A stretch of DNA of 64,000 nucleotides, from positions 26,352,529 through 26,416,528 of the forward strand of contig NC_135185.1 of the NCBI RefSeq assembly GCF_041146795.1, in the 5' to 3' direction. A program made the translations under genes and the position numbers. The notes beneath the pieces were generated by a model that saw only the letters and a program-made list of their open reading frames with translations, made no database searches and was not told the DNA's origin. Positions within the stretch are counted from its first letter, which is position 1; each line of letters begins with the position of its first letter. Origin of the DNA: Maylandia zebra (lineage: Eukaryota; Chordata; Actinopteri; Cichliformes; Cichlidae). Of the stretch, positions 3,434 to 64,000 are shown in pieces.

Positions 3434-4105
3434 GCTTAGACAGTAAACGTGGCGAAACTATTGAGGAAAAAACACCGCGTATATATTGTTTATTATGACT
3501 CTGGTTTTACGTGGCCTATCAACACAATTTAAAAACTGGTTTATATCACCTTGTTGCTTTGTCTTTAAGTGGTCATGTGATTGGCTTACCACGACTACTT
3601 TATTCTTCCTCAGTCAAACAGCAGCACTCATGCGATTGTTTTGCACCCTTAGCTCCAGGTGTTGTGCTAGACAGTGATCGTGATTACCGTCTGCGGGAGT
3701 GCGTGCAGCTGCTTAAAGCTGTAGCGTCCAGATTACTTACAGCTACTTCCGTGCAACTGATATAAGATGCAGTAAGCTGAACACAGCTTCAACCATCTGT
3801 TTGTTGAAAAATAGTAACGGATCATATTTTCTTGTTAGTAACTGTAACGGCGTTGTAACGATAGGAATAGTAATTAGTTAGATTACTCGTTACTGAAAAA
3901 AGTAACGCCGTTAGTAATGCCGTTACATGTAACGCCGCTATTCCCATCATTGCTCTTAAATAATAAGCAATTTTCGGTCCCGAGAACTGGCAGTCTCTCT
4001 CACATGACATCTGTTTACTGAAATTCTCTGTCTTCAGACACTCCCAGCAATAAACTTTGGTGTGCAACTTCCTGATGAGACGAATGAGACTGATCCACAA
4101 TTAAC

Positions 4106-13672: not shown

Positions 13673-13691
13673 CTCCTCCCGAAAATGAGAC

Positions 13692-13773
13692 CGACGAGGA
13701 TGGGATTCGAACCCACGCGTGCAGAGCACAATGGATTAGCAGTCCATCGCCTTAACCACTCGGCCACCTCGTC
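13692..13773 (-). tRNA. tRNA-Ser (anticodon GCT)
   Basis: The minus strand reads as a complete serine tRNA of 82 nt. The acceptor stem GACGAGG pairs with CCTCGTC, followed by discriminator G. There is an A box TGGCCGAGTGG, anticodon GCT (13,738-13,740 on the plus strand) in a TGGA/TCCA stem, the long variable arm expected of serine tRNAs, and a perfect T arm GTGGG-TTCGAAT-CCCAT. A T4 terminator follows within about 10 nt (AAAA at 13,682-13,685 on the plus strand). No CCA is encoded, as expected in eukaryotes. Confidence 0.97.
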
Positions 13774-14032
13774 ATGTGCTGCTCGAACGCTCAGGGTATT
13801 TGAGAGACCCATATTATTATTAAGGAATTTTGAAAGCTCAAGTTCGTGTTGTTTGTGAACTACCACTAGAGTTAATGCATCCTCATTCATCAAGCATCTC
13901 CTGTTTTAAAACTATGCCTTTAAAAATTAATTAAAATTAAATTAAATTAAAAATGAAATAAGAGTACATATATTCACAATATACAAGCAGTGGCAGCACT
14001 TAAGCACATCCTCACGCTTGCGTTATCGCTGA

Positions 14033-26462: not shown

Positions 26463-26912
26463 TGTTGTAGAGACCCACCTTTTAGCACATCCCAGCACAC
26501 CCACTCACTTCACCAGATGCACCTTGTTTAGTTCTCTCACCTTTGATTGGGTGTGGTGCTTGTCCTTGATTGCACTCACCTGTCACACATTATATGTCAC
26601 ACAGTACATAAGGACTGCATTCACTTTTGGCTCACTCTTTCCTCACTTCCACACGGGGCGGCAGCTGAGGTGAGGTTCTGTTTGGGTTTTTATTTTATGT
26701 AATGTTAAGGTAATGAGTAACTTGAATCTGTTTTCTTTCAGCATTGGCAGTCCATGTGTGTCTTTGTTTCCTTCCTTTTTTGCCTTATTTATTTGAGAAT
26801 AAAAGGAGTACCCTGAAAATAATTCTGCATTAGATGGCTGCTTTTCTTATTCTAACCGGATGAGCCCATGAAGCTGATTGCTTCAGCCCTGAACCTTCCT
26901 CCCTTCAAAACA
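26463..26912 (+). repeat. 5' LTR of BEL/Pao element 1
   Basis: TG...CA ended, 450 bp, with AATAAA at 26,798-26,803 and a TATA-like 'ttatatg' near 26,590. It is the only copy in a position to drive the ORF. Confidence 0.95.
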
Positions 26913-26928
26913 TGGTCCTCCGAGCCGG
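26913..26928 (+). promoter_or_regulatory. primer-binding site, tRNA-Tyr-like
   Basis: TGGTCCTCCGAGCCGG directly abuts the 5' LTR. It is complementary to the 3' end of eukaryotic tRNA-Tyr with one mismatch, judged from remembered tRNA sequence. Confidence 0.6.
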
Positions 26929-26943
26929 AGAGGTATTAGCATC

Positions 26944-29900
26944 ATGGATACACAGCAGCCATCTAGAAAATCCAGTCGTGATAGTAGACCTCCTGCCTAC
27001 CTGCAACAGTATGAAGTTCAGTACCCTGGAGCTAGAAGAGCTACATGTGAGACAGAGAGCCAAACTGAATGTCAGCACAGTGATAAAGACACACATGGGC
27101 TGCAGGATCCTGTCGGAGAGTCAGAAAGACCACCAGAGACATCCCTTGTTCCTTTACCCACCACCCAAGATGAGGTCATGAGGGAACTCCTAACGACCAT
27201 GAGGGAGATTAAGCAATTTATGGTTCAATCATCTCCTTCCCATTCTCGTAGCTCCAGATCTTCCATTCGCACAGTCTCATCTGATGGAATCAAAGCTTCT
27301 GTATGCAGTTTACGAGCCAGTCCTCAAACACATCAACAACATGAGCAGCTCCCAGTGATTGATACAGTAACCTGTCAATCACCCTTCCAGCCCCCGCAGA
27401 TTAGCCGTCAGTCTGGCTTAGTTACAGCTGCCAGCCCTCCTTTACCTAATTCAACAATACTAGATGTTGCTATCCCTTCAACTGGTTTGCCTAGACCAGT
27501 CCTTGCTACAGAAGATGAGACTCCCTTTGATTTCCTGGCCTTATCACGGCAGGATCCCGACCAGATCTCATGTGTTCAACCTGCTGTTCCTTTAGCTGAA
27601 GACCCTGTTCAACCTCTCATTCGCATATCTGACCACAAGCATTGCCCTCCTCTAGAGCAGCAACCAGCTACATCCAATACCTCATATGAACAGAAACCTT
27701 TGATATCTGGTACTGCTAGCTCGGGTCACTCCTCTAGCACGAGAACACATGTATATAAGCTTGAAGGTCCTTCATTTCCAGACCTTAGTAGAGAAGACGA
27801 GATGCAATACAGGATGTTACGGATGGCCCTTACAAACCTTCTTGATCCTCATGAGACAGAGCACTTCAAATATCATGTCCTTCTTGATCACCTCAAAGTA
27901 GACCAAGCTAAACGATTAGCTCTTGCCTTTTCCTACGCTCCTGACCCATACACTCAAGCCATCAAAGCCCTTGATGAGCGTTATGGGCAACCAAGACAGC
28001 TGGCATTGAAAGAGCTAAAGAATATACTGGAACTGCCTCCTATCAGAGCAGGTGATGGCCAGAGCCTTGATAATTTTGCTCTTCGAGTACAGGCTTTAGT
28101 TGGGTTGCTTAGCACTATGGGAGAACAAGGACGTGCAGAACTAGACTGTGGCTCCCATGTCGATCGCTTGTTAGTGAAGTTGCCTGCAGAGCATTTCAGT
28201 CGCTTCAAACGGCATGTTTACAGGGAACAGGGAGAAATGACGTATACCTTGCCTTTGTTCTCATCCTGGTTGCAAATGGAATGCAGGTGTCAACCAAAGA
28301 AGGCCAGTCCTGTTCCATCCTTCAACCAGACACGACCTGCCCGTAAGTACGCTTCTCCACTTACAACAATATTACATGAAGCAAATACATCTGATGATTC
28401 TGTACATGCAACACAGCCGATCATGACAACTAAGGCTACATGTGCATATTGCTGCTCACCAGAACATCACATTAGTAAGTGTCCTGGGTTTATTCAGAAG
28501 ACAAAGGATGAGAAAACAAACTGGATAAAAGTAAACAAACGGTGTTGGCGTTGTGCTAGGAATCATCAGGCCGCAAAGTGTGACCTAAAGAAAGCATGTG
28601 CCACCTGTATGGGACTACATCTCCAGATCCTATGCGATGTAAATAAGAGATCTAAAACTGACACTCATCCTGTAGTGAGGACGCTATACTTTGATAGACC
28701 TAGTGATTGTCCTAGTGTCCTTTTAAAGGTCGTGAAAGTGCTCCTGCGAAATGGCAAAAGAACCCTTGAAACATACGCAGTACTTGACGATGGCTCCCAG
28801 CGTACCATTCTTCTGACATCAGCTGCACAGCATCTCAACCTAACTGGGGAAGCAGAGAGATTATCACTTAGAACGGTCCGTCAGGAAGTTGAAACTATTC
28901 ATGGTTCTTCCGTAAGTTTCAAAATCTCACCCATCGCACACCCAGAGAAAACCTACACAATTACTAATGCCTTCACTGCAAATCACCTAGCACTTTCAGA
29001 CCACACCTACCCTGTATCATCTCTCCAACGGAGATACAAGCATCTTCAAGGTATCCCATTACCCATTATTAATAAAGCAGCGCCACTCCTGCTCATAGGC
29101 TCAGATCATACTCACCTCATCACGCCTACTGCTCCATTGAGACAGGGACCATATGAGTCTCCTGCAGGAGTTAAAACCCAATTAGGATGGACACTTCAAG
29201 GCCCGATCACAGATTTTCATCCCCAGAGCAGTACAGAGCACGTGCAGTGTTTGTTCACATCTCTCAGTTCATCTGCAGATGTACTGCGTTATCATGTTGA
29301 GAAGCTATGGCAACTAGACACTTTACCTGAATACAGTGAGAAATCTGTGATCCGATCAAAGCAAGATCAACTGGCACTGGAACTCCTTGAACAGGCCACA
29401 AAAAGGGTTGAGATCCATGGTGTTAATCGCTACGCCACTCCTCTTCTTCGGATGGCAAACTTTCCTCCTTTGAATGTCCCTCCAAATGTAGTCATGTCTA
29501 GACTCCGCAACACTGAGGCTCGGTTAGCTAAAGATCCTGGCAAAGCCATGTCTTACAAGGATCAGATTTTGAAATTGGAGCAAGCAGGCTATATAGTCAA
29601 ACTTAGCCCAGAGGAGATGCACAATAGCAAAGAAACCTGGTATATCCCTCATCATATGACAAGTCACAACAATAAAGATCGCATAGTCTTTGACTGCTCT
29701 TTCACATTTCAAGGTCAGTGTCTCAATAAGTACCTATTGCCAGGACCAATCCTAGGCCCAACACTTCTTGGTGTTTTGTTGCGTTTTAGGCAACATTCAG
29801 TAGCAATAAGTGGCGACATCAAAGGCATGTTTCACCAAGTCCGTCTTCTGCCTCCTGATAAACCACTCCTCCGATTCCTGTGGCGTGACATGAACAAAGC

Positions 29901-32592
29901 AGCTCCCCCTTCAGTGTATGAGTGGCAGGTACTCCCCTTTGGCACGACCTGCAGCCCTTGTTGTGCAATCTATGCACTGCAGAAACATGTGAAGGAATAT
30001 CAATCTGACAAAGATGTGCAGTCTTCAGTAATGCAGTGTTTCTATGTTGATAACTGCTTGCAGAGTTTTCCATCAGCAGAGTTAGCTCGAACACTCCTAG
30101 ACAAATTAAGAAACCATCTATCAGAAGGAGGCTTCGACCTTCGCCAGTGGGCCAGCAATAATCCTGTTGTGATTAGCCATCTACCATCTGAGGTAAGAAC
30201 GGCAAGTAATGAACTTTGCCTGACTGAAGACAAGCCATCTGGCCCACCTGAACGCACATTAGGATTATTGTGGAATTGTGAGACTGATTTGTTTGCCTAT
30301 AAATACAGAACTCTAGCCTCACACCCCACCACAATGCGTCGTATCTATGCAGTACTTGCTCGTCTGTATGACCCATTAGGCTACTTACTCCCATTCACAA
30401 CACGCGCCAAAACCTTGGTGCAAGAGCTATGGAGAAAAGAGAGAGATTGGGACGACCCTTCCCTTCCACACGACCTCTTAGAGGCATGGAAGTCCTGGGA
30501 AGAAGAACTTTGTTATCTCCCACAAATTGCCATCCCACGTTGCTATACTTCTAAGGAAATGGATGTTTCTACCACAGTTCGAGACATTCATATCTTCTGT
30601 GATGCTTCAGAGCGAGCATATGGTGCTGTCGCATATTTGAGATCAGATGATCTTGAAGGCCATGTAGAACTGAGTTTCTTGTTAGCCCGCTCACGTGTTG
30701 CTCCTAAACGGCATTTAACAATACCCAGACTGGAGCTATGCGCAGCCCTACTAGGCGCACGCCTCAGTGAGCTCATACAAACAGAACTCACCTTACCAGT
30801 CAGGACTACCACCCTTTGGTCTGACTCGACAACTGTACTTCACTGGCTTCAGTCAGATTCCTGCCGTTTCAAGGTATTCGTAGGAGCCAGAGTCTCAGAA
30901 ATTCAAAACCTCACAAACAGTCAAGACTGGAGATACATCAATTCAGCCACAAATCCTGCTGATGATGTTACGAGAGGTAAATCCCTGAAAGAGTTCCTTA
31001 GCCCAAACAGGTGGACTGAGGGTCCCTCGTTTCTGCATGAACCTCCAAATAACTGGCCCACAGTTACAGATCTCCATCCTGATGATGATCAGACTGAGTT
31101 AAAGAAATCCTACTTTTTTGGTATTGTCAGTATACCCTCCCATACATACACACCCAGCTTCAGAACGTATCAAGAGCTATTGGATTTCACGGCTCATTCA
31201 CTCTCCAACCAAAAGGGTAACATTCCTTCTGTAGCTGATTATCAAACAGCAGAACAAGAAATCCTTCGTCAGGCACAACTGGACAGTTTCGGTGAAGACT
31301 TAGCCCGTTTACAGTCAGACAAACCCCTCTCATCCGACAGCCGTCTATTGTGTTTGTCACCAGTGTTGTGCAGGAATTCTGGACTTATCCATGTAGGAGG
31401 CCGATTACGGCAAAGCCCAGACTTGGAATTGAATGTCATTCACCCAATAGTACTTGATCCTGCTCATCCAGTGACCAAACTGATCATACAAAATTATGAT
31501 GACAAACTGCATCATGCTGGTTCAGAAAGACTTTTTGCTGAACTACGTCGGAAATTCTGGATTCTCAGAGGAAGGGAAGCCGTACGCAGGCATCGGTATA
31601 GCTGCGTCGCATGTCAGAAATGGAGAGCACAGCCCATCATTCCCAAGATGTCAGACTTGCCTGCTGCTCGTCTTAGGTTATTCAAACCACCTTTCTACTC
31701 CACAGGAATAGACTGCTTTGGACCATACAAGGTCAAGACAGGCCGCAGATCGGAGAAAAGGTGGGGAATAATATTCAAATGTCTCACCACTCGGTGTATA
31801 CATCTTGACCTCCTAAACAGTATGGATACAGACTCCTTCCTCATGGCCCTCCAACGATTCATTTCTCGACGAGGAACACCCCTGGAAATTATATGTGATC
31901 AAGGAACTAACTTCAAAGGAGGAGATAAGGAACTACGGGCAGCTTTTAACAACCTTGCTCCGACTCTACAGCCGGTCCTGATGACTAAAAGAATCCATTT
32001 CAAATTCAATCCCCCGCATGCACCCCATTTCGGTGGAGCCTGGGAGAGGGAGATACGTTCTGTGAAGAATGCTCTGAAGAGAACCATTGGTGCACAGATG
32101 GTCACTGAAGAGGTCTTAAGAACAGTCCTAATTGAGATTGAAGGCATTCTTAACTCAAAACCCCTAGGCTATGTATCCTCAGACATTGCGGACATTGACC
32201 CCGTAACCCCAAACCTTCTCCTTATGGGCCGACATGATTCATCACTCCCCCTGGTATCCTATTCTGATTCTGACCTCCTAGGCCGACGACGATGGCGACA
32301 TGCACAAATATTGGCAGATCACTTCTGGCGACACTTCATAAGAGACTATCTACCATCCCTCCAAAGAAGACCCAAATGGCAGAAGGAAAAACCAGATCTC
32401 ACATTGAACTCTGTCGTCATGATTATGGATTCACACCTTCCACGAGCCCTTTGGCCTGTAGGAAGAGTGACGCGCTTGCTGAAAAGCCCAGATGACCACA
32501 TCAGAACTGTGGAGGTCTTAGTACAGGATAAAACCTATATCCGCCCTGTCTCCTGTCTGATCCCCCTGCCCTCGCTTCCTGACGAAGACTGA
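26944..32592 (+). CDS. BEL/Pao Gag-Pol polyprotein, intact
   Basis: Single ORF of 1882 codons starting 31 nt after the LTR. In order it shows: a polar N-terminal region; a Gag-like DUF1759 region at about residues 280-450; two CCHC knuckles (C500-x2-C-x4-H-x4-C, and CWRC...H...C shortly after); and an A17-type aspartic protease with LDDGSQ (D615). The reverse transcriptase has FDCS near 916, catalytic D958 in SGDIKGMFHQV and FYVDN (D1036, with N1037 in place of the usual second D). RNase H follows with D1220, E1264 and D1294. The integrase has a zinc-binding region and D1590, D1652 and E1701. A DUF5641-type C-terminus (RRRWRHAQ...) ends the protein. Length and order fit BEL/Pao. It would assemble capsids and carry out reverse transcription and integration of its own RNA. 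No frameshift or stop is present. Confidence 0.97.
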   Translation: MDTQQPSRKSSRDSRPPAYLQQYEVQYPGARRATCETESQTECQHSDKDTHGLQDPVGESERPPETSLVPLPTTQDEVMRELLTTMREIKQFMVQSSPSHSRSSRSSIRTVSSDGIKASVCSLRASPQTHQQHEQLPVIDTVTCQSPFQPPQISRQSGLVTAASPPLPNSTILDVAIPSTGLPRPVLATEDETPFDFLALSRQDPDQISCVQPAVPLAEDPVQPLIRISDHKHCPPLEQQPATSNTSYEQKPLISGTASSGHSSSTRTHVYKLEGPSFPDLSREDEMQYRMLRMALTNLLDPHETEHFKYHVLLDHLKVDQAKRLALAFSYAPDPYTQAIKALDERYGQPRQLALKELKNILELPPIRAGDGQSLDNFALRVQALVGLLSTMGEQGRAELDCGSHVDRLLVKLPAEHFSRFKRHVYREQGEMTYTLPLFSSWLQMECRCQPKKASPVPSFNQTRPARKYASPLTTILHEANTSDDSVHATQPIMTTKATCAYCCSPEHHISKCPGFIQKTKDEKTNWIKVNKRCWRCARNHQAAKCDLKKACATCMGLHLQILCDVNKRSKTDTHPVVRTLYFDRPSDCPSVLLKVVKVLLRNGKRTLETYAVLDDGSQRTILLTSAAQHLNLTGEAERLSLRTVRQEVETIHGSSVSFKISPIAHPEKTYTITNAFTANHLALSDHTYPVSSLQRRYKHLQGIPLPIINKAAPLLLIGSDHTHLITPTAPLRQGPYESPAGVKTQLGWTLQGPITDFHPQSSTEHVQCLFTSLSSSADVLRYHVEKLWQLDTLPEYSEKSVIRSKQDQLALELLEQATKRVEIHGVNRYATPLLRMANFPPLNVPPNVVMSRLRNTEARLAKDPGKAMSYKDQILKLEQAGYIVKLSPEEMHNSKETWYIPHHMTSHNNKDRIVFDCSFTFQGQCLNKYLLPGPILGPTLLGVLLRFRQHSVAISGDIKGMFHQVRLLPPDKPLLRFLWRDMNKAAPPSVYEWQVLPFGTTCSPCCAIYALQKHVKEYQSDKDVQSSVMQCFYVDNCLQSFPSAELARTLLDKLRNHLSEGGFDLRQWASNNPVVISHLPSEVRTASNELCLTEDKPSGPPERTLGLLWNCETDLFAYKYRTLASHPTTMRRIYAVLARLYDPLGYLLPFTTRAKTLVQELWRKERDWDDPSLPHDLLEAWKSWEEELCYLPQIAIPRCYTSKEMDVSTTVRDIHIFCDASERAYGAVAYLRSDDLEGHVELSFLLARSRVAPKRHLTIPRLELCAALLGARLSELIQTELTLPVRTTTLWSDSTTVLHWLQSDSCRFKVFVGARVSEIQNLTNSQDWRYINSATNPADDVTRGKSLKEFLSPNRWTEGPSFLHEPPNNWPTVTDLHPDDDQTELKKSYFFGIVSIPSHTYTPSFRTYQELLDFTAHSLSNQKGNIPSVADYQTAEQEILRQAQLDSFGEDLARLQSDKPLSSDSRLLCLSPVLCRNSGLIHVGGRLRQSPDLELNVIHPIVLDPAHPVTKLIIQNYDDKLHHAGSERLFAELRRKFWILRGREAVRRHRYSCVACQKWRAQPIIPKMSDLPAARLRLFKPPFYSTGIDCFGPYKVKTGRRSEKRWGIIFKCLTTRCIHLDLLNSMDTDSFLMALQRFISRRGTPLEIICDQGTNFKGGDKELRAAFNNLAPTLQPVLMTKRIHFKFNPPHAPHFGGAWEREIRSVKNALKRTIGAQMVTEEVLRTVLIEIEGILNSKPLGYVSSDIADIDPVTPNLLLMGRHDSSLPLVSYSDSDLLGRRRWRHAQILADHFWRHFIRDYLPSLQRRPKWQKEKPDLTLNSVVMIMDSHLPRALWPVGRVTRLLKSPDDHIRTVEVLVQDKTYIRPVSCLIPLPSLPDED

Positions 32593-32637
32593 TCCTGATC
32601 ATATCAACATATTTCTCACTAGAAATATGGGGGCGGC

Positions 32638-33089
32638 TGTTGTAGAGACCCACCTTTTAGCACATCCCAGCACACCCACTCACTTCACCAGATGCACCTT
32701 GTTTAGTTCTCTCACCTTTGATTGGGTGTGGTGCTTGTCCTTGATTGCACTCACCTGTCACACATTATATGTCACACAGTACATAAGGACTGCATTCACT
32801 TTTGGCTCACTCTTTCCTCACTTCCACACGGGGCGGCAGCTGAGGTGAGGTTCTGTTTGGGTTTTTATTTTATGTAATGTTAAGGTAATGAGTAACTTGA
32901 ATCTCTGTTTTCTTTCAGCATTGGCAGTCCATGTGTGTCTTTGTTTCCTTCCTTTTTTGCCTTATTTATTTGAGAATAAAAGGAGTACCCTGAAAATAAT
33001 TCTGCATTAGATGGCTGCTTTTCTTATTCTAACCGGATGAGCCCATGAAGCTGATTGCTTCAGCCCTGAACCTTCCTCCCTTCAAAACA
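32638..33089 (+). repeat. 3' LTR of BEL/Pao element 1
   Basis: 452 bp, identical to the 5' LTR by eye apart from one extra CT at about 32,905. Followed by the target duplication GTTGT. Confidence 0.95.
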
Positions 33090-56458: not shown

Positions 56459-58376
56459 GTGAGAAACCATTATTTTACATTTTATAATAGATTGGTTTTG
56501 TGTGCATGTGCATGAGTATAGTACAACACTGAGAAGTACTGTTCTTGGAATACCAGTTTATCTGGATTGATGTTGTCGTTTTATATGCAGGAAAGAGTTG
56601 CACGGTTTCTTTTTTCCTTCTTAAATCTATGTAAATGTCAGATGGACAGACAGACAGTCCTTATTTATAAGTAACACGTGTTCCTCAAAGCCAAAAAGCA
56701 CAACAGCTGTCGGTTGTTTCAGCCCAGTTTGTTCTTCGGAAGCCACACGAGCTTCCAGTTTAGTTTAAAAACAGACATCTGAGGTACAGATTGATTTTTC
56801 ACATGCAGATACAATTTGTTGTCCTTTCACAAATTACAAAAAAGCTTTTTAGAGAAGCACTAAACTGGTAATTATATAGGTAAGAGCGAGAGAAAGTAAA
56901 GTGACTGCATCCTATAACTGTCTTTTCAGCAGTTTCAGCAACTCTGACTGTGTAGTGAACTTTTCCACATTTTCCCTCTTAGCTTTCACAACGTTAGTTT
57001 TTTTTTTGGAGCTCAGTTCCTGAACTTTCTGGCTCACCTGAGAACTGATACCCTGCCAGCCCGTTCTTCATCTCCGCCTCCATCATCACTGCTAAATTTC
57101 CCAGGACTTCGGGGGAGCACTCTCTTTTCTCTTCCTGCCGTAACAAATCAAACCCGGTCTGACACGACCACTGGCCAGCGCTGATACAGACAACTCTTGA
57201 CCTTGATGTTTGGATTCGGTCTGTTTATTCTCCACAGTGTAGATGCAGTGCAAAATTCATGCCAGAGAAAGAAAAAGGTTAAACCTCTGTGAATGTCTTA
57301 TCGCCCCCTGTGGAGCATCCATGAATATTTCATTGGCATATTTCAACTCTTCTCCTCCTCTCTGCCTTTTCCTTCCACGCTGGAATTTGTGGGAGAGGTG
57401 TTCTTAGTATTGATGCTCTTTGTAGATATTTTCTATGTGCCGCCATCTATTCTGTTTACTTTTATTGCTTAACATGTTTATCTCTGTTGTCAACAATGGA
57501 AAAAGACCACAGATACTCAGACAAACACAAAAATGAGCAAATATCCGTACAAGGGAACACACACGCGCAGATGCACATATAAACACCTCGACTCTGCAAT
57601 ATAATCTAGCAGTCCAGTCGTCCATTTCAGAGCTTGAAATGCATTGTGCAGTGTTATCAGGCTGGACCGAGCACAGCTGGCAGCAGGCTGTTTGTCTGTC
57701 AGCCGACAGCTCCATTAGCTCAGGCTGGCGGACAGACAGATGGAGGCACTGCAGGGTAATGAGCAGAGAAAGGAAAAAAGGTTGAAAACGGCTTCTTCCC
57801 TTGAGAAGGAGCAGTTTTCAAATTGAGATGAGGGACTCGCGGTCTCAAATGGGAACACATGACAGGATGGCCATCTGTTCACACTTTTCAGGTTTAGTGT
57901 TAAATTCTCAGAGATCAATAGCCAGTAAAATGGTCTGATTCTTGCTGATTAATGACATCTTTTTCCTTCTATTCTCTTTTTTTCTTGGTACCTTCTCTGT
58001 TTTCTTTTAAACTGCTGTGGCCTCTGCTCATTCACTGCTGCTGGACACATAAAACGTATCATCATTTGGAATCAACTCGTAAAAAATACTGATAAATATC
58101 ATTCAGGCCCCAGACCTGGAGCCTTTAAGTATCTTTCAGCTGTTTTTATCTTTATTTTTTGCAGCTTTGCTGTTTTGAATCAGCCTTAGCTCTAGACAGC
58201 AGGCAGCTGATTTAATGAAGATTTTCTGATGGCCCACTTTATTTGCCCACTCAGCAACAAATGGCATGCCTAGTTAGAGCTGGATCGTTCCAACAGGAGT
58301 TGTAGCCACCAGAGCTGAAGACAGCACTCGACTTACACTCGTGAGATGGCCAGCATAACACAAACATAACACATAA
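56459..58376 (+). other. stac intron 7, part before the retrotransposon
   Basis: No further stac exon found: no SH3-type ALYDF/ALYKF block with splice sites in any plus frame. The last five bases, CATAA at 58,372-58,376, are the presumed left target duplication of the BEL/Pao insertion. Confidence 0.55.
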
Positions 58377-58849
58377 TGTAGCATCCAGTCGAACTGAGAA
58401 GGCCAGAACTGATGGTTGTTGAATGACCTTTATTATTCCTTGCCGTGTATCAGACAACGAACCAACGTAAGAGCTAGACAAACAAATAAAACAATTACCA
58501 TATTATTCATGTAACAGCATCTTAACCGCTCATTACGCTGGTCTAACCGTTTTCTATTAAGCTATATAATACATATTATGCATTTCAGATTGCTCAAATT
58601 AAATCATATACATTACAAACCTTGTTCCCCTGTCGACTGTAGCTAGAACCATTTGTTTTCGTACAATTTAACTATATCCCTCTCTCCCTTTTCTCCGTTA
58701 GCATTAATTTTTCACCTTCTTCCGTCTTTCTGCACATCAAGCGTTTACCGTTAAAACATTCACTTCCGGTCCCACAGGAAGTTACCAAAACAAAAGCACA
58801 AACGTTACATTACGTGAATGTGGGCCAGCTTTACACATCCGCCGCTACA
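58377..58849 (-). repeat. 3' LTR of BEL/Pao element 2
   Basis: 473 bp, ends TGTAGC/GCTACA. On the minus strand AATAAA lies at 58,429-58,434. Confidence 0.93.
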
Positions 58850-58961
58850 CTCCCACCAAATTATTTGCTGTTACAAACAAATAAAACACAAATAATTTCT
58901 AAACAGGTAACTTAACAATGATAATACCTTTGTATATGCAACAACAAATTCTCATCGCATT

Positions 58962-61900
58962 TTAACTGCTTAGTGCATCTTGTTTTTCACAACTTTCCAG
59001 CAGTAGAACCAACTTATGAACTGGGCGTTCCACTGTAGACATCTTATGCAAACGTTCACCCTTTTTACTAAGGTTTCTGTCTGCAAAGGTTACTTTGACC
59101 TTTCTCACAAGTCCATCTTCGTCTGTTATGGTGTCCACAACCCTACCAAGTCTCCATTGGGATCGTGGCAGTATTTCTTCCTTGTCCATCACTATGTCAC
59201 CTACTTGCATATTCCTTTTAACAACATGCCATCTCTGCCGGACCCTGATGTTGTGCAGATATTCTCCCTTCCATCTGCTCCAAAATTGCTCCGTTAGGTA
59301 TTGCACCTGACGCCATTGCTTCCGGGCGTACAGATCCTCTTTAACAAACTGTCCTGGAGGAGGCAAGGCTGTTGTGGTCTTCATAGTTAGGAGATGATTT
59401 GGAGTTATTGGTTTCAAACTGTTTGGATCATTGAGATTGTCTGTCGTCAATGGGCGGCTGTTTACTATTGCAGCTGCTTCATAGAGAAAGGTTCTGAGCG
59501 ATGAATCGGTGAGTCGTCTCTTTGCGAGAGCGAGTGTGGCGTTGAGGACGTTTCTCACAGTCCGAATTTGTCGTTCCCATACTCCACCTGCGTGGCTAGC
59601 ATGGGGTGTGTTAAACACGAATTCACATTGTTTCTCAGATAGAAAGATTGTCAGTTTTTCAGTGTCTATTTCATTCAGTGCTGCACACAGTTCATTTTTG
59701 GCACCTACAAAGTTAGTACCTCGATCACATTTTATTTGTCTGACAGAGCCTCTCAGAGCTATAAAGCACCTTAGTCCATTAATGAAAGCGTCCGTAGTCA
59801 GGTCTTCTAACATTTCTACGTGTACTGCTCGTAAATAGAAACAAGTGAAAAGGAGAGCGTACCTTTTGTTTTCTTTTCTTGCTTGTTTGGTTAGGAACGG
59901 GCCGAAAACATCCATACCACAGTATGTAAAAGGCGGAGAATGCTCGACTCTTTCTGTGGGGAGATCTTTCATTTTTTGTCCTTCCACAGCTCTCCTTAGT
60001 CTCCGACATGTCACACACTGACGGATGTAGTCTGATACTGTTTGACTTAGCTTGGGAATCCAATAACCGCTGGACCGTATTTCGTTCATTGTGAAGCTCT
60101 TTCCTTGATGATTTATTCTTTCGTGACAGTGAGCGATTATGAGTTTTGTAGTATGATGGTCTCTTGGAATGACAGTTGGATGTTTGAATGTGTTAGGAAG
60201 CGATGAGTGTTGTAGCCTTCCTCCCACCTTGAGCACATTGTCTTCGTCCAAGAAAGGATCCAACTTGTAAATTTTGTTGCTCTCATGTAGTGCCTTTCCT
60301 TTGCTTAATGTCTTTATCTCATCTGAAAATGTTAGTCCTTGTAGGTTTTTGATAATCACCATTTCAGCGTTTTGTCTTTCAGTTACAGTGCTGAGTGACT
60401 TTGATTTGTCTCTGAGTAGGAAACGTTTGAGACGTGCTATGGCACTGACAGCGTGTGACCAGGATGAGAACCTTGTGAGACGGTCACAGAGACTTCTGTG
60501 TTCTGTAGTTTGGCTGTTGAGTGTTTGCACGTTTCTCACCTCTGGATCTCCCACCAAAAGTTCAATAGACTCTTTAGTTGGAAGGTTTAACTTCTTTTCC
60601 CATAAGAACTGAGGGCCTGTGAGCCAGTTTGATGATAGCAGTTCCGCTACTGATGTGCTCCTTGATGTTATGTCAGCGGGGTTTTCACTCGTCGGTACAT
60701 AGAACCATTGCTGTGGTGTAGTATTGTTTTGTGTCTCGCCTTCAGGTCCATTATCATCAATCTCTTTGGCATCACCCCTTTGTATAATGTCATTCATGTA
60801 TGTGACATAGTCTCTTTTGTATTTTTCATCACGCATTGGTTTACATGTGAGCTGATTGAGTCTGCTCTCGGCGAGTTGTCTGTTATCTGGCATTTGTAGC
60901 CTTTCTTTAAATGGCAATGGCATTTCATAATGTCCCTTTTCTGCTTGTGTTATGCCTTGTTCAAGTTTCTCAAGAAACCTAAGGTCGTCTTGAGACACCG
61001 GCTTTTCGTTTATTTCGTTTTCTTTAAAGTCCCTTTCTAGTGCACGTATTGCATCTGCGGGAGTACATGGAGGCATTTCTTTAACAGTTATTCTGTGACA
61101 GAGACTCCTTGTTGTCTCTGATGCACTGCATGGCACTGAGTTGCCAACTATGCTCCATCCTAAATCAGTTTGGATGGCATATGGCTCATTGTCTTTACCT
61201 AAGAGTACTTGTCTAGGCGCCAGAGCTTGGGGACAAGTATAACCTATCAGGAGACTCACCTCACAACTGAGGAGCGGTGGGATCTCATCTACAATGGACG
61301 ACAAATGACTCCACAGTTTTGCCGTGTCACATGTTGGTATGTGTTCTCTATTTGCAGGTATGTAGTCCTTTGTGTAAGCAGTTGGGAGCCTTAGCACAGT
61401 TGCTGAATTGTAACCTCTCACTAGAAGATCACACACCTTTCCGCTGCTTACTACTGCATTTTTACCCATCATTGTGGTAAGTCTGAGTTTCACAGGGCAC
61501 ACATTTGCTTGCAGTTTCTGTGTTACATCCTGATCTATAAAAACAGTGTCGCTCTGCGTGTCTAGTAGCGCATAGACTAGTTTTTCCCTTTGTGGATTAG
61601 CAGCCGTTGAGACCCATACTGGGACTATCATGGAGGTGCTGACTGTGTGTTCTGCTCTAGCGACATTTAACGCCATGGCTGTTGCACTTTCAGGTGAGTT
61701 CCCTTGTGTTGCGTTGTCTATACTCACTTGAGCTTGCTTTTCTCTTTGCAGACTAATGCTGTAGTTCTCATCGTGAAGACAGGTCGGGTGTCTCTTAGAG
61801 CAGGTTTCACAAGTGAGGCGCCGTTTGCAGTCCTTAGCACTATGACCTTGCTTTAAACAACCATAACAATGTTTATTGTCCTTTACATGTTTCTTTTTCA

Positions 61901-63593
61901 TTTCCAGGGTCATTTGCAGAAAGTTTGGGCACTTTATAAGTGGATGCAACTCTTGGCACAGTGTGCATGAAGAACTGTTGTATATTTTAGTCTTTGCATC
62001 TCTTTCAGTTGTGTTAATGTTAAATACACTTGCCTTGTTTCTTTTGACTTCTTTTGTGTTTCTTTTGTCATCATTTGTTTCCGGGGAGCGAAGTGCATGT
62101 ATGGAAGTGACTGGGTTACATGCTACTTCTGCTTCAAGCGAGAGAAAGGAGGCAAATTCACTAAAGCTGGGGAATTCACCACCGCCCATGAGTATCTTTG
62201 TTACATGCCTGTTCCATCTTGTGTTTATCCAGTCTGGCAATTTATGCAACAGTTTCTGATTTTCTTCACAGTCATTGAGTATTTGCAGTCCTTTCACGTG
62301 AGGCATAGCAAGTGTGCATGCATTCACAAAATCAGCAAAGTTCCTTAGCCCATCAGCATCTCTCGACTGTATTTTAGGCCAACTAGATAACTTCTCTCTA
62401 AATGCCCTTTGTAGCACGAAAGGCTGGCCATACCTTTGGTTTAACTTTGCCCAAGCATCGTTATACGCTTCTTCATCATTTCTGAAGAAAGTCCCTTCAA
62501 GGCACTTGCGAGCTGAGCCAGTTACATACCTTTTCAGATAGTACAGTTTATCTGCTGCTGACATGCCAGTTTGTTCAATAAGTGACATGAAAGTGGATTT
62601 CCATTCAATAAATTTTATTGGCTCACCACTAAACATCGTTGGTTCTGGCGTGGGGAGTCTATTTATTCTTATGCTGTCTTGTACCGCCTGTGCAAGCTGG
62701 CTGACACTAGGAGGGGTTGTTGGCGCCGGTATGGAGTATGATGGTACAGTGTGTTTGGGTGTGTGCTCTGGGTTCACCTTTTCCATCTTAACTGAATATG
62801 CATCATCAAGTTGCGACAACTCTCTGTTGTAGGCGTCCAACCTGGCGCGAGCGGCTTCCACCTCCCTTTCGGCTTTCAGGCGTTCCAACTCTGATGTTTG
62901 AACTGCCATTTGTTTCTTATGCTCCTCTTCTAGAGCCTTTATCTTTTCCTTCTGTCTTTGTTCCTCTTGTACAATCTTGTACTCTGCCTCCTTTGCTGCT
63001 AGTTCTGCTGCTGCCTCTGCTCGTTTTGAAGCAAGATGTGAGGCTGAAGACAGTTGGCTACGTTTCGATGCTGCAGTTGAACCATAGATGGACTGGGCAT
63101 AATCATGTTCTAATAGTCTGCGTAGACGTTTTCTTTCATATTCTCCATCAAAATCTCCATCTACACTGCTTATTCTTTCCAGGATGACTTTCACGATGTC
63201 ATGAGTAACTGCTTCACATGCATCGGTTTTTCTTCGTATGTCTGATGAAGGTGCAATGTGACTTCTCATTTCAGTGTACAGCTTTAGCAGTTCATCTTTT
63301 CTTTGCTCTACATCATCTGCAAGATCTGCCATTTCTTTCTCTGAAATGTCCAACTTTAATCTTTCTCTTGTTTCTCGCACTCGTATTTTCCATTGTTCAT
63401 AAAGAGTTAATAGTCTTTTTTCTTTTTTACTTATCTCTTCTTTCTGATAAGTTAGCATTTTTTCGGTTGGCACCTTGGCTCTTTCTGAACGCCTTGGAAT
63501 CGCAGAGTTACTTTGAGCTTTATCTTGTGGCTCATTTAATATTTGTTCTTTGTTTGCAAACTGTTCATTAATGTCTTCTTCTGAATCCTCCAT
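58962..63593 (-). CDS. BEL/Pao polyprotein lacking reverse transcriptase and RNase H
   Basis: One ORF of 1543 codons. The N-terminal 280 residues are strongly charged and predicted coiled coil (KEEISKKEKRLLTLYEQW, then EAEYKIVQEEQRQKEKIKAL). A Gag-like DUF1759 region follows at about 300-500 (PEPTMFSGEPIKFIEWKSTF). CCHC knuckles lie at about 540-600 (CTLCQELHPLIKC, CYGCLKQGHSAKDC). The A17 protease has LLDTQSD (D678). Around residue 953 the frame passes from DDNGPEGE, normally just before the reverse transcriptase, straight to WFYVPTSENPADITSR, normally the end of RNase H. About 430 residues expected from element 1 are absent. The integrase is complete: zinc region, D1228, D1290, E1340, then a DUF5641-type end. 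The frame is open throughout, so Gag, protease and integrase could still be made, but the copy cannot reverse transcribe by itself. Confidence 0.95.
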   Translation of the reverse strand: MEDSEEDINEQFANKEQILNEPQDKAQSNSAIPRRSERAKVPTEKMLTYQKEEISKKEKRLLTLYEQWKIRVRETRERLKLDISEKEMADLADDVEQRKDELLKLYTEMRSHIAPSSDIRRKTDACEAVTHDIVKVILERISSVDGDFDGEYERKRLRRLLEHDYAQSIYGSTAASKRSQLSSASHLASKRAEAAAELAAKEAEYKIVQEEQRQKEKIKALEEEHKKQMAVQTSELERLKAEREVEAARARLDAYNRELSQLDDAYSVKMEKVNPEHTPKHTVPSYSIPAPTTPPSVSQLAQAVQDSIRINRLPTPEPTMFSGEPIKFIEWKSTFMSLIEQTGMSAADKLYYLKRYVTGSARKCLEGTFFRNDEEAYNDAWAKLNQRYGQPFVLQRAFREKLSSWPKIQSRDADGLRNFADFVNACTLAMPHVKGLQILNDCEENQKLLHKLPDWINTRWNRHVTKILMGGGEFPSFSEFASFLSLEAEVACNPVTSIHALRSPETNDDKRNTKEVKRNKASVFNINTTERDAKTKIYNSSSCTLCQELHPLIKCPNFLQMTLEMKKKHVKDNKHCYGCLKQGHSAKDCKRRLTCETCSKRHPTCLHDENYSISLQREKQAQVSIDNATQGNSPESATAMALNVARAEHTVSTSMIVPVWVSTAANPQREKLVYALLDTQSDTVFIDQDVTQKLQANVCPVKLRLTTMMGKNAVVSSGKVCDLLVRGYNSATVLRLPTAYTKDYIPANREHIPTCDTAKLWSHLSSIVDEIPPLLSCEVSLLIGYTCPQALAPRQVLLGKDNEPYAIQTDLGWSIVGNSVPCSASETTRSLCHRITVKEMPPCTPADAIRALERDFKENEINEKPVSQDDLRFLEKLEQGITQAEKGHYEMPLPFKERLQMPDNRQLAESRLNQLTCKPMRDEKYKRDYVTYMNDIIQRGDAKEIDDNGPEGETQNNTTPQQWFYVPTSENPADITSRSTSVAELLSSNWLTGPQFLWEKKLNLPTKESIELLVGDPEVRNVQTLNSQTTEHRSLCDRLTRFSSWSHAVSAIARLKRFLLRDKSKSLSTVTERQNAEMVIIKNLQGLTFSDEIKTLSKGKALHESNKIYKLDPFLDEDNVLKVGGRLQHSSLPNTFKHPTVIPRDHHTTKLIIAHCHERINHQGKSFTMNEIRSSGYWIPKLSQTVSDYIRQCVTCRRLRRAVEGQKMKDLPTERVEHSPPFTYCGMDVFGPFLTKQARKENKRYALLFTCFYLRAVHVEMLEDLTTDAFINGLRCFIALRGSVRQIKCDRGTNFVGAKNELCAALNEIDTEKLTIFLSEKQCEFVFNTPHASHAGGVWERQIRTVRNVLNATLALAKRRLTDSSLRTFLYEAAAIVNSRPLTTDNLNDPNSLKPITPNHLLTMKTTTALPPPGQFVKEDLYARKQWRQVQYLTEQFWSRWKGEYLHNIRVRQRWHVVKRNMQVGDIVMDKEEILPRSQWRLGRVVDTITDEDGLVRKVKVTFADRNLSKKGERLHKMSTVERPVHKLVLLLESCEKQDALSS

Positions 63594-63728
63594 TTTAACT
63601 TTATTTTCCTTATGCCTTTCGCCGTTTTGTTCTCTGACCTGCTTCTGCCATCTGCTGGACGTTGTGGGAAATGCCGTTAAACCTTGAGCCCTCGTGGTGT
63701 AGCAAAATGGCGGCGGTCAAGCTCTTAC
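63594..63728 (-). other. 5' leader of BEL/Pao element 2
   Basis: About 135 nt between the 5' LTR and the start codon. It contains a GC-rich piece (ccgccgccattttg on the minus strand). No primer-binding site beginning with TGG directly follows the LTR. Confidence 0.6.
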
Positions 63729-64000
63729 TGTAGCATCCAGTCGAACTGAGAAGGCCAGAACTGATGGTTGTTGAATGACCTTTATTATTCCTTGCCGTGT
63801 ATCAGACAACGAACCAACGTAAGAGCTAGACAAACAAATAAAACAATTACCATATTATTCATGTAACAGCATCTTAACCGCTCATTACGCTGGTCTAACC
63901 GTTTTCTATTAAGCTATATAATACATATTATGCATTTCAGATTGCTCAAATTAAATCATATACATTACAAACCTTGTTCCCCTGTCGACTGTAGCTAGAA
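63729..64000 (-). repeat. 5' LTR of BEL/Pao element 2 (cut by window edge)
   Basis: The first 272 bases from the internal border are identical to 58,377-58,648. Confidence 0.95.

What the first reader, a model, noticed from the sequence alone, without database searches (positions are those of the whole stretch)
58962..63593. BEL/Pao element with an open frame but no reverse transcriptase or RNase H
Gag, protease and integrase are continuous in one 1543-codon ORF, yet near residue 953 (about position 60,734) about 430 residues are missing compared with element 1. Keeping frame by chance has odds of one in three. Identical LTRs show the copy is very recent, so it either deleted after insertion or was mobilised in this state by a helper. 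The second case would be a defined non-autonomous family that retains Gag and integrase.
Basis: partly seen in the sequence, partly recalled or inferred. Interest (0 to 1): 0.75.

Follow-up and report, generated by a model that had tools for sequence, protein, structure and literature searches.

The report
RT-less BEL retrotransposon family, still mobile
A recently inserted jumping element has lost its copying enzyme but keeps its shell and integration genes, and other copies with the identical loss show that it has been spread in that crippled state, presumably with enzyme borrowed from intact relatives.

Summary
Window 58962-63593 (-) is one 1543-codon frame with BEL/Pao Gag and an integrase that keeps D, D and E; reverse transcriptase and RNase H are absent (about 420 residues, against element 1). 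The two LTRs are identical, with a 5-bp target duplication, CATAA.

The junction is base-identical in 4 of 4 places found. One (C21, L007) has identical LTRs, another target duplication (GCAGG), other flanks and the whole frame open; another (C2, L008) is older. So the deleted form itself was mobilised. Differences gathered since then are mostly synonymous (pN/pS about 0.24), which suggests that the RT-less polyprotein still works. No RT+ copy with this LTR was found, but the genome holds at least 150 BEL RT-RNase H regions that could supply enzyme. The donor is unknown: the searches for it did not complete.

The type is known: mouse IAP 1-delta-1, and an RT-less BEL/Pao element with 470-bp LTRs in herring (PMC8233318). 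New here: independent insertions shown, selection after the deletion, and a sister lineage lacking the integrase core.

The parts
58372..58376 (.). target-site duplication CATAA (the partner follows the right LTR, outside the window, in L005)
   Evidence: flanks read
58377..58849 (-). 3' LTR of the element, 473 bp, ends TGTAGC...GCTACA
58850..58857 (-). purine-rich GGTGGGAG just before the 3' LTR (polypurine tract, by position)
58962..63593 (-). single ORF, 1543 aa: Gag - (protease motif) - [RT/RNase H missing] - integrase
   Evidence: pieces
62199..62633 (-). DUF1759 (Gag)
   Evidence: E 1e-16
61770..61967 (-). Cys/His knuckles of Gag (approximate limits)
   Evidence: read
61551..61574 (-). 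protease-like motif ALLDTQSD (Q where the usual triad has G; approximate limits)
   Evidence: read; no Pfam match
60729..60734 (-). deletion junction (EGET|QNNTTP), give or take a few bases; base-identical in 4 of 4 copies
   Evidence: placed by comparison with element 1
60672..60707 (-). last stretch of the RNase H region, WFYVPTSENPAD, kept behind the junction
59997..60158 (-). integrase H2C2 zinc-binding domain
   Evidence: E 9.3e-10
59574..59912 (-). integrase core from the first D (59910-59912) through the second D (59724-59726) to E (59574-59576)
   Evidence: alignment with element 1
59001..59321 (-). DUF5641, C-terminal integrase region of BEL elements
   Evidence: E 3.6e-24
63720..63728 (-). 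primer-site position: GTAAGAGCT follows the 5' LTR; no tRNA-like TGG there
58467..58475 (-). AGCTCTTAC within the LTR, complementary to the nine bases after the 5' LTR
63729..64000 (-). 5' LTR, cut by the window's end (runs to about 64201)

Best explanation
A small non-autonomous BEL/Pao-derived family. An in-frame loss of RT and RNase H arose once in an ancestor (shown: the junction is identical in every copy found). The deleted RNA was afterwards reverse-transcribed and integrated at least twice and probably three times (shown for two by separate target duplications). Reverse transcriptase must have come from another element (inferred). The element most likely still makes its Gag-integrase polyprotein, which packages its own RNA and takes part in integration, much as the fusion protein of mouse IAP 1-delta-1 acts in cis (inferred from purifying selection and by analogy; not tested).
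For: Identical junction in 4 of 4 copies. Window copy and L007: identical LTR pairs, target duplications CATAA and GCAGG, flanks that do not match. L007 keeps all 1543 codons, no indel, no stop. Leaving out one 19-bp inversion, the window copy differs from L007 by 20 synonymous and 15 other changes (pN/pS 0.245, binomial p 4e-5) and from L008 by 50 and 36 (0.235, p 4e-11). Codon positions 1/2/3: 7/7/21 and 17/16/53; behind the junction alone 1/2/11 and 6/7/31; other forward frames give 1.1 to 1.9. D, D and E kept. Possible RT donors: 150 of 647 candidates scored, all 150 over the Pfam cut-off, 55 by my count with open frames of 1900 aa or more.
Against: No partner with matching LTRs was found, and searches for RT+ relatives by Gag, integrase or protein did not complete. 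The selection signal could have been imported by recombination with RT+ relatives; of 16 informative sites among the four copies, 9 support one grouping and 7 conflict with it, so exchange is likely. With the inversion counted base by base the pN/pS is 0.356, and the integrase part then shows 10 synonymous to 15 other changes. L007 itself carries that inversion inside the integrase core. One reverse frame also gives 0.35, as expected where its third positions fall together. The protease triad is DTQ, not DTG or DSG.
Confidence: 0.85

Rival explanations
1. Passive passenger: mobilised wholly by proteins of other BEL elements; its own open frame is only a sign of youth.
For: Many BEL elements with long open frames are present. 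Two of the four copies have stops and small deletions (L006, L008). L007 has an inversion in the integrase core. Exchange with RT+ relatives could imitate selection (conflicting sites).
Against: pN/pS about 0.24 between copies that both descend from the deletion, with a codon-position-3 excess also in the integrase half. No close RT+ source of exchanged sequence was seen: the junction query gave only 4 matches, all of full length.
Confidence: 0.25
2. RT was deleted in this single copy after it inserted.
For: None beyond the identical LTRs, which only show that the copy is young.
Against: Three further places carry the base-identical junction, one with its own target duplication.
Confidence: 0.01
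3. Assembly error or collapsed reads.
For: Reads were not available.
Against: The same junction stands in four places on three contigs, in copies that differ by 1 to 3%.
Confidence: 0.01
4. The copies arose by segmental duplication, not retrotransposition.
For: L006 and L007 lie about 44 kb apart on C21 in opposite orientation, share 9 changes, and L006 lacks LTRs, so L006 may be such a copy.
Against: Window copy and L007 share the element from LTR to LTR and nothing beyond, and each has its own 5-bp duplication.
Confidence: 0.02

Closest known systems
RT-less BEL/Pao element of Atlantic and Pacific herring (PMC8233318; section 8 and passages read)
   Same: BEL/Pao; 470-bp LTRs (473 here); long ORF that keeps the integrase core and lacks the whole RT; eight further copies above 98% identity.
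   Different: 5.2 kb and 1180 aa there, about 5.8 kb and 1543 aa here. That paper says part of the Pao peptidase domain remains and the gap spans about residues 950-1270 of a zebrafish protein; here no part of that domain matches Pfam and about 420 residues are gone, so the right edge may differ. It does not discuss mobilisation in the deleted form in what I read.
Mouse IAP 1-delta-1 (PMC6466679, PMC7411935; passages read)
   Same: An internal deletion fuses gag and pol in frame; needs proteins in trans; the fusion protein helps in cis; very mobile.
   Different: An endogenous retrovirus of class II, with a 1.9-kb deletion of part of gag and pol; tested in the laboratory. Here BEL/Pao, Gag complete, RT-RNase H removed; nothing tested.
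RLG_Quinta with RLG_Cereba, and RLG_Sabrina, of wheat (PMC11302176; passages read)
   Same: Non-autonomous LTR elements that keep an intact Gag and are moved by autonomous partners.
   Different: Gypsy elements of plants; they lack both RT and integrase; for Quinta the partner is known.
Element 1 of this window (26463-33089, 1882-aa ORF)
   Same: BEL/Pao, recent, same order of domains; integrase 36% identical.
   Different: Has RVT_1 and Peptidase_A17, other LTR sequence and a tRNA-like TGG primer site; not a close relative and not shown to be the donor.

Membership tests
BEL/Pao LTR retrotransposon (autonomous) | DUF1759-type Gag and Cys/His knuckles | tested here: met
   (E 1e-16); knuckles read
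BEL/Pao LTR retrotransposon (autonomous) | Reverse transcriptase, RNase H and Peptidase_A17 region | tested here: not met
   no Pfam match in the pieces scanned; so it is not filed as an autonomous BEL/Pao element, only as a derivative
BEL/Pao LTR retrotransposon (autonomous) | Integrase with H2C2, D-D-E and DUF5641 | tested here: met
BEL/Pao LTR retrotransposon (autonomous) | Aspartic protease with the D-T/S-G triad | tested here: inconclusive
   DTQ in its place; PMC554778 (passages) reports other triads in BEL/Pao copies and takes them as probably inactive
Non-autonomous LTR retrotransposon family | Several insertions that share one defect | tested here: met
Non-autonomous LTR retrotransposon family | LTR pair with TG...CA ends and target duplication | tested here: met
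   window copy and L007; not so for L006 (no LTRs) and L008 (left LTR truncated)
Non-autonomous LTR retrotransposon family | Autonomous partner with matching LTR ends and primer site | tested here: inconclusive
   none among loci found by LTR; direct searches unanswered
IAP 1-delta-1-like element (works like) | Translated fusion protein that helps its own RNA in cis | not testable with these tools
   indirect only: pN/pS about 0.24
Same family as the herring element | Sequence similarity and same junction | not testable with these tools
   herring sequence not held; text only
TRIM or LARD | No coding capacity | tested here: not met
   1543-codon ORF; definition recalled

The most novel reading that the evidence does not exclude
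Division of labour inside one BEL family: lineage A (this element) keeps Gag and integrase without RT, under continued selection, while a sister lineage B with related LTRs lacks the integrase core in frame (C5, C15 and probably C23). If B or its kin kept RT, the two would supply each other's missing enzyme, a retroelement living as complementary halves. The B copies seen are truncated before RT, so B's RT is unknown.
Probability: 0.08. Interest if true: 0.8.

Novelty: new member of a known kind. Interest (0 to 1): 0.45.

Why it matters
It gives a clear natural case, outside mouse and plants, of an LTR element that was moved after losing reverse transcriptase while selection kept Gag and integrase. 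With the herring report it suggests that RT-less, integrase-bearing BEL elements may be a recurrent strategy in vertebrates or fish rather than debris. It makes a general question testable by counting: which proteins must an LTR element supply in cis, and which can it borrow?

Tried and rejected
Deletion after insertion: rejected, three further places have the same junction. Assembly error: rejected on the same ground. Segmental duplication: rejected for window copy and L007, left open for L006. A full-length copy with this LTR: looked for around the LTR matches. 33 matches; 18 stretches of 8 to 10 kb fetched around nine of the LTR places and the shorter loci L009-L038; element 1's RT gave no tblastn hit at 1e-6 in the 18 stretches, and P0002 gave one weak hit (E 0.58, in L040) at E up to 10 in L009-L056. 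LTR places without internal sequence in what was fetched may be solo LTRs. Remnants with integrase were found on C5, C8 (13.05 Mb), C15 and C23. The list is incomplete: 150 of 647 candidates were scored and element 1 of the window is not among the rows, so counts are lower bounds, and 'no RT+ copy found' is not proof of absence. Relatives in viral contigs: 4 stretches matched a pattern, 0 confirmed. PDB: one weak hit, Ty3 Gag-Pol, E 0.081. No structure was predicted. Papers: searches (one search was turned back for its wording); PMC2413153, the IAP cis paper, is not held and is known to me only through PMC6466679. PMC3118150 (passages): no occurrence of 'non-autonomous' or 'deletion'.

Organism: not identified; fish is a guess from contig sizes and a LINE-like ORF in L039.

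Full report
What is there. The element lies on the minus strand between two LTRs: 58377-58849 and 63729 to about 64201, the second running off the window. Both match the 472-bp LTR query at 100%; the full LTR is 473 bp with ends TGTAGC...GCTACA. The flanks give a 5-bp target duplication, CATAA. Inside is one ORF of 1543 codons, 58962-63593. Searched in pieces, it shows DUF1759 Gag (E 1e-16), Cys/His knuckles and a protease-like LLDTQSD, and an integrase with H2C2, DUF5641 and D, D, E lined up with element 1. No piece matched RT, RNase H or Peptidase_A17, which element 1 has. By eye against element 1, the frame goes from the entry of RT (KET|WYIPHH) straight to the last stretch of RNase H (QNNTTPQQWFYVPTSENPAD), about 420 residues lost, near 60732.

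Other copies. A 301-bp query across the junction found four places: the window, two on C21 and one on C2, each over the whole query at 99 to 100%, with the junction identical to the base. L007 (C21) is complete: identical LTRs over 474 bp, target duplication GCAGG, no shared flanks with the window copy, and all 1543 codons open without an indel. L008 (C2) is about 97% identical, with a stop at codon 140, two small deletions, an insertion of about 220 bp and damaged LTRs. L006 (C21, 44 kb from L007) is a fragment without LTRs, with a stop at codon 962 and a 10-bp deletion; it may be a local duplicate. So the deleted form moved: two insertions are shown outright, and L008 makes a probable third.

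Selection after the deletion. All four copies descend from the deletion, so their differences arose later unless imported. Window copy against L007: 46 differences, 11 of them one exact 19-bp inversion within the integrase core of L007. The remaining 35 are 20 synonymous and 15 not (pN/pS 0.245, p 4e-5); against L008, 50 and 36 (0.235, p 4e-11). With the inversion counted as single changes the first ratio is 0.356. Codon position 3 dominates, also behind the junction (1/2/11 and 6/7/31), and the two other forward frames give ratios of 1.1 to 1.9; one reverse frame gives 0.35, since its third positions coincide. Identical LTRs leave little room for changes after insertion in the window copy and L007. 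The reading is that Gag-integrase went on being selected in the RT-less lineage. The main caveat is exchange with RT+ relatives: of 16 informative sites, 9 join L006 with L007, 5 join L006 with L008 and 2 join L007 with L008.

Where RT comes from. None of the loci found by the LTR shows RT: no hit at 1e-6 in 18 stretches, one weak hit (E 0.58) at E up to 10 in L009-L056. The genome is rich in BEL elements: 150 of 647 candidates for Peptidase_A17 were scored, all 150 over the cut-off, 55 by my count with open frames of at least 1900 aa. That list is incomplete: element 1 is not in it. Which of them served is unknown; the direct searches did not complete.

A sister lineage. Integrase remnants next to related LTRs on C5 and C15 share one junction that removes 267 bp (C5; arithmetic) of the integrase core, with the second D. 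BLAST coordinates on C23 fit the same junction. In C5 the loss is a multiple of three; C15 has further small changes. These copies are cut off before RT, so whether this lineage had RT is open.

Priming. The nine bases after the 5' LTR are GTAAGAGCT, without a tRNA-like TGG, and are complementary to AGCTCTTAC at LTR positions 375-383. Of 4806 internal 9-mers, 13 have such a complement in the LTR. The site is unchanged in 13 of 13 LTRs compared, as are 41 of 464 9-mers. This resembles the self-priming of Tf1 (recalled) and is only a lead; a tRNA fragment was not excluded.

Known relatives. Mouse IAP 1-delta-1 has a 1.9-kb deletion that makes a gag-pol fusion; it needs proteins in trans, and the fusion helps in cis (PMC6466679, PMC7411935; passages). 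The herring TSHR paper reports a BEL/Pao element with 470-bp LTRs, an 1180-aa ORF, an intact integrase core, no RT and eight further copies above 98% identity (PMC8233318, section 8). In what I read it does not treat it as a mobilised non-autonomous family. Wheat Quinta and Sabrina keep Gag but lack RT and integrase (PMC11302176, passages). In the listings of seven paper searches I saw no other report of an RT-less BEL/Pao family; I read few of the papers listed.

Verdict. The finding is real and its bolder reading is right, but the kind is known, and the herring case is close. Confidence: mobilised in the deleted form 0.95 or more; borrowed RT together with its own Gag-integrase acting in cis about 0.6; 0.85 is given for the explanation as a whole, resting mainly on the first part.

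Noticed in passing
window 58467-58475 and 63720-63728: The nine bases after the 5' LTR are complementary to a conserved site inside the LTR, and the tRNA-like TGG is missing; possible self-priming as in Tf1.
   Followed up: partly
L007 (C21), ORF nt 3927-3945: Exact 19-bp inversion in the integrase core between the second D and E, in an otherwise open frame.
   Followed up: partly
L039/L040 (C5), L048 (C15), L028 (C23): Integrase remnants next to related LTRs share a deletion of the integrase core (267 bp in C5), a second deleted lineage.
   Followed up: partly
window 26463-33089 (+): A second BEL element with RVT_1, Peptidase_A17 and an 1882-aa ORF, near-identical LTRs and a tRNA-like primer site TGGTCCTCCGAGCCGGA.
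   Followed up: partly
G000 as a whole: At least 150 BEL Peptidase_A17 regions, many in open frames of about 2000 aa: an unusually active-looking BEL population.
   Followed up: no
window 61551-61574: Protease-like motif reads DTQ where D-T/S-G is usual; unclear whether the protease is active.
   Followed up: no
window 13691-13774 (-): tRNA-Ser (GCT) gene.
   Followed up: no
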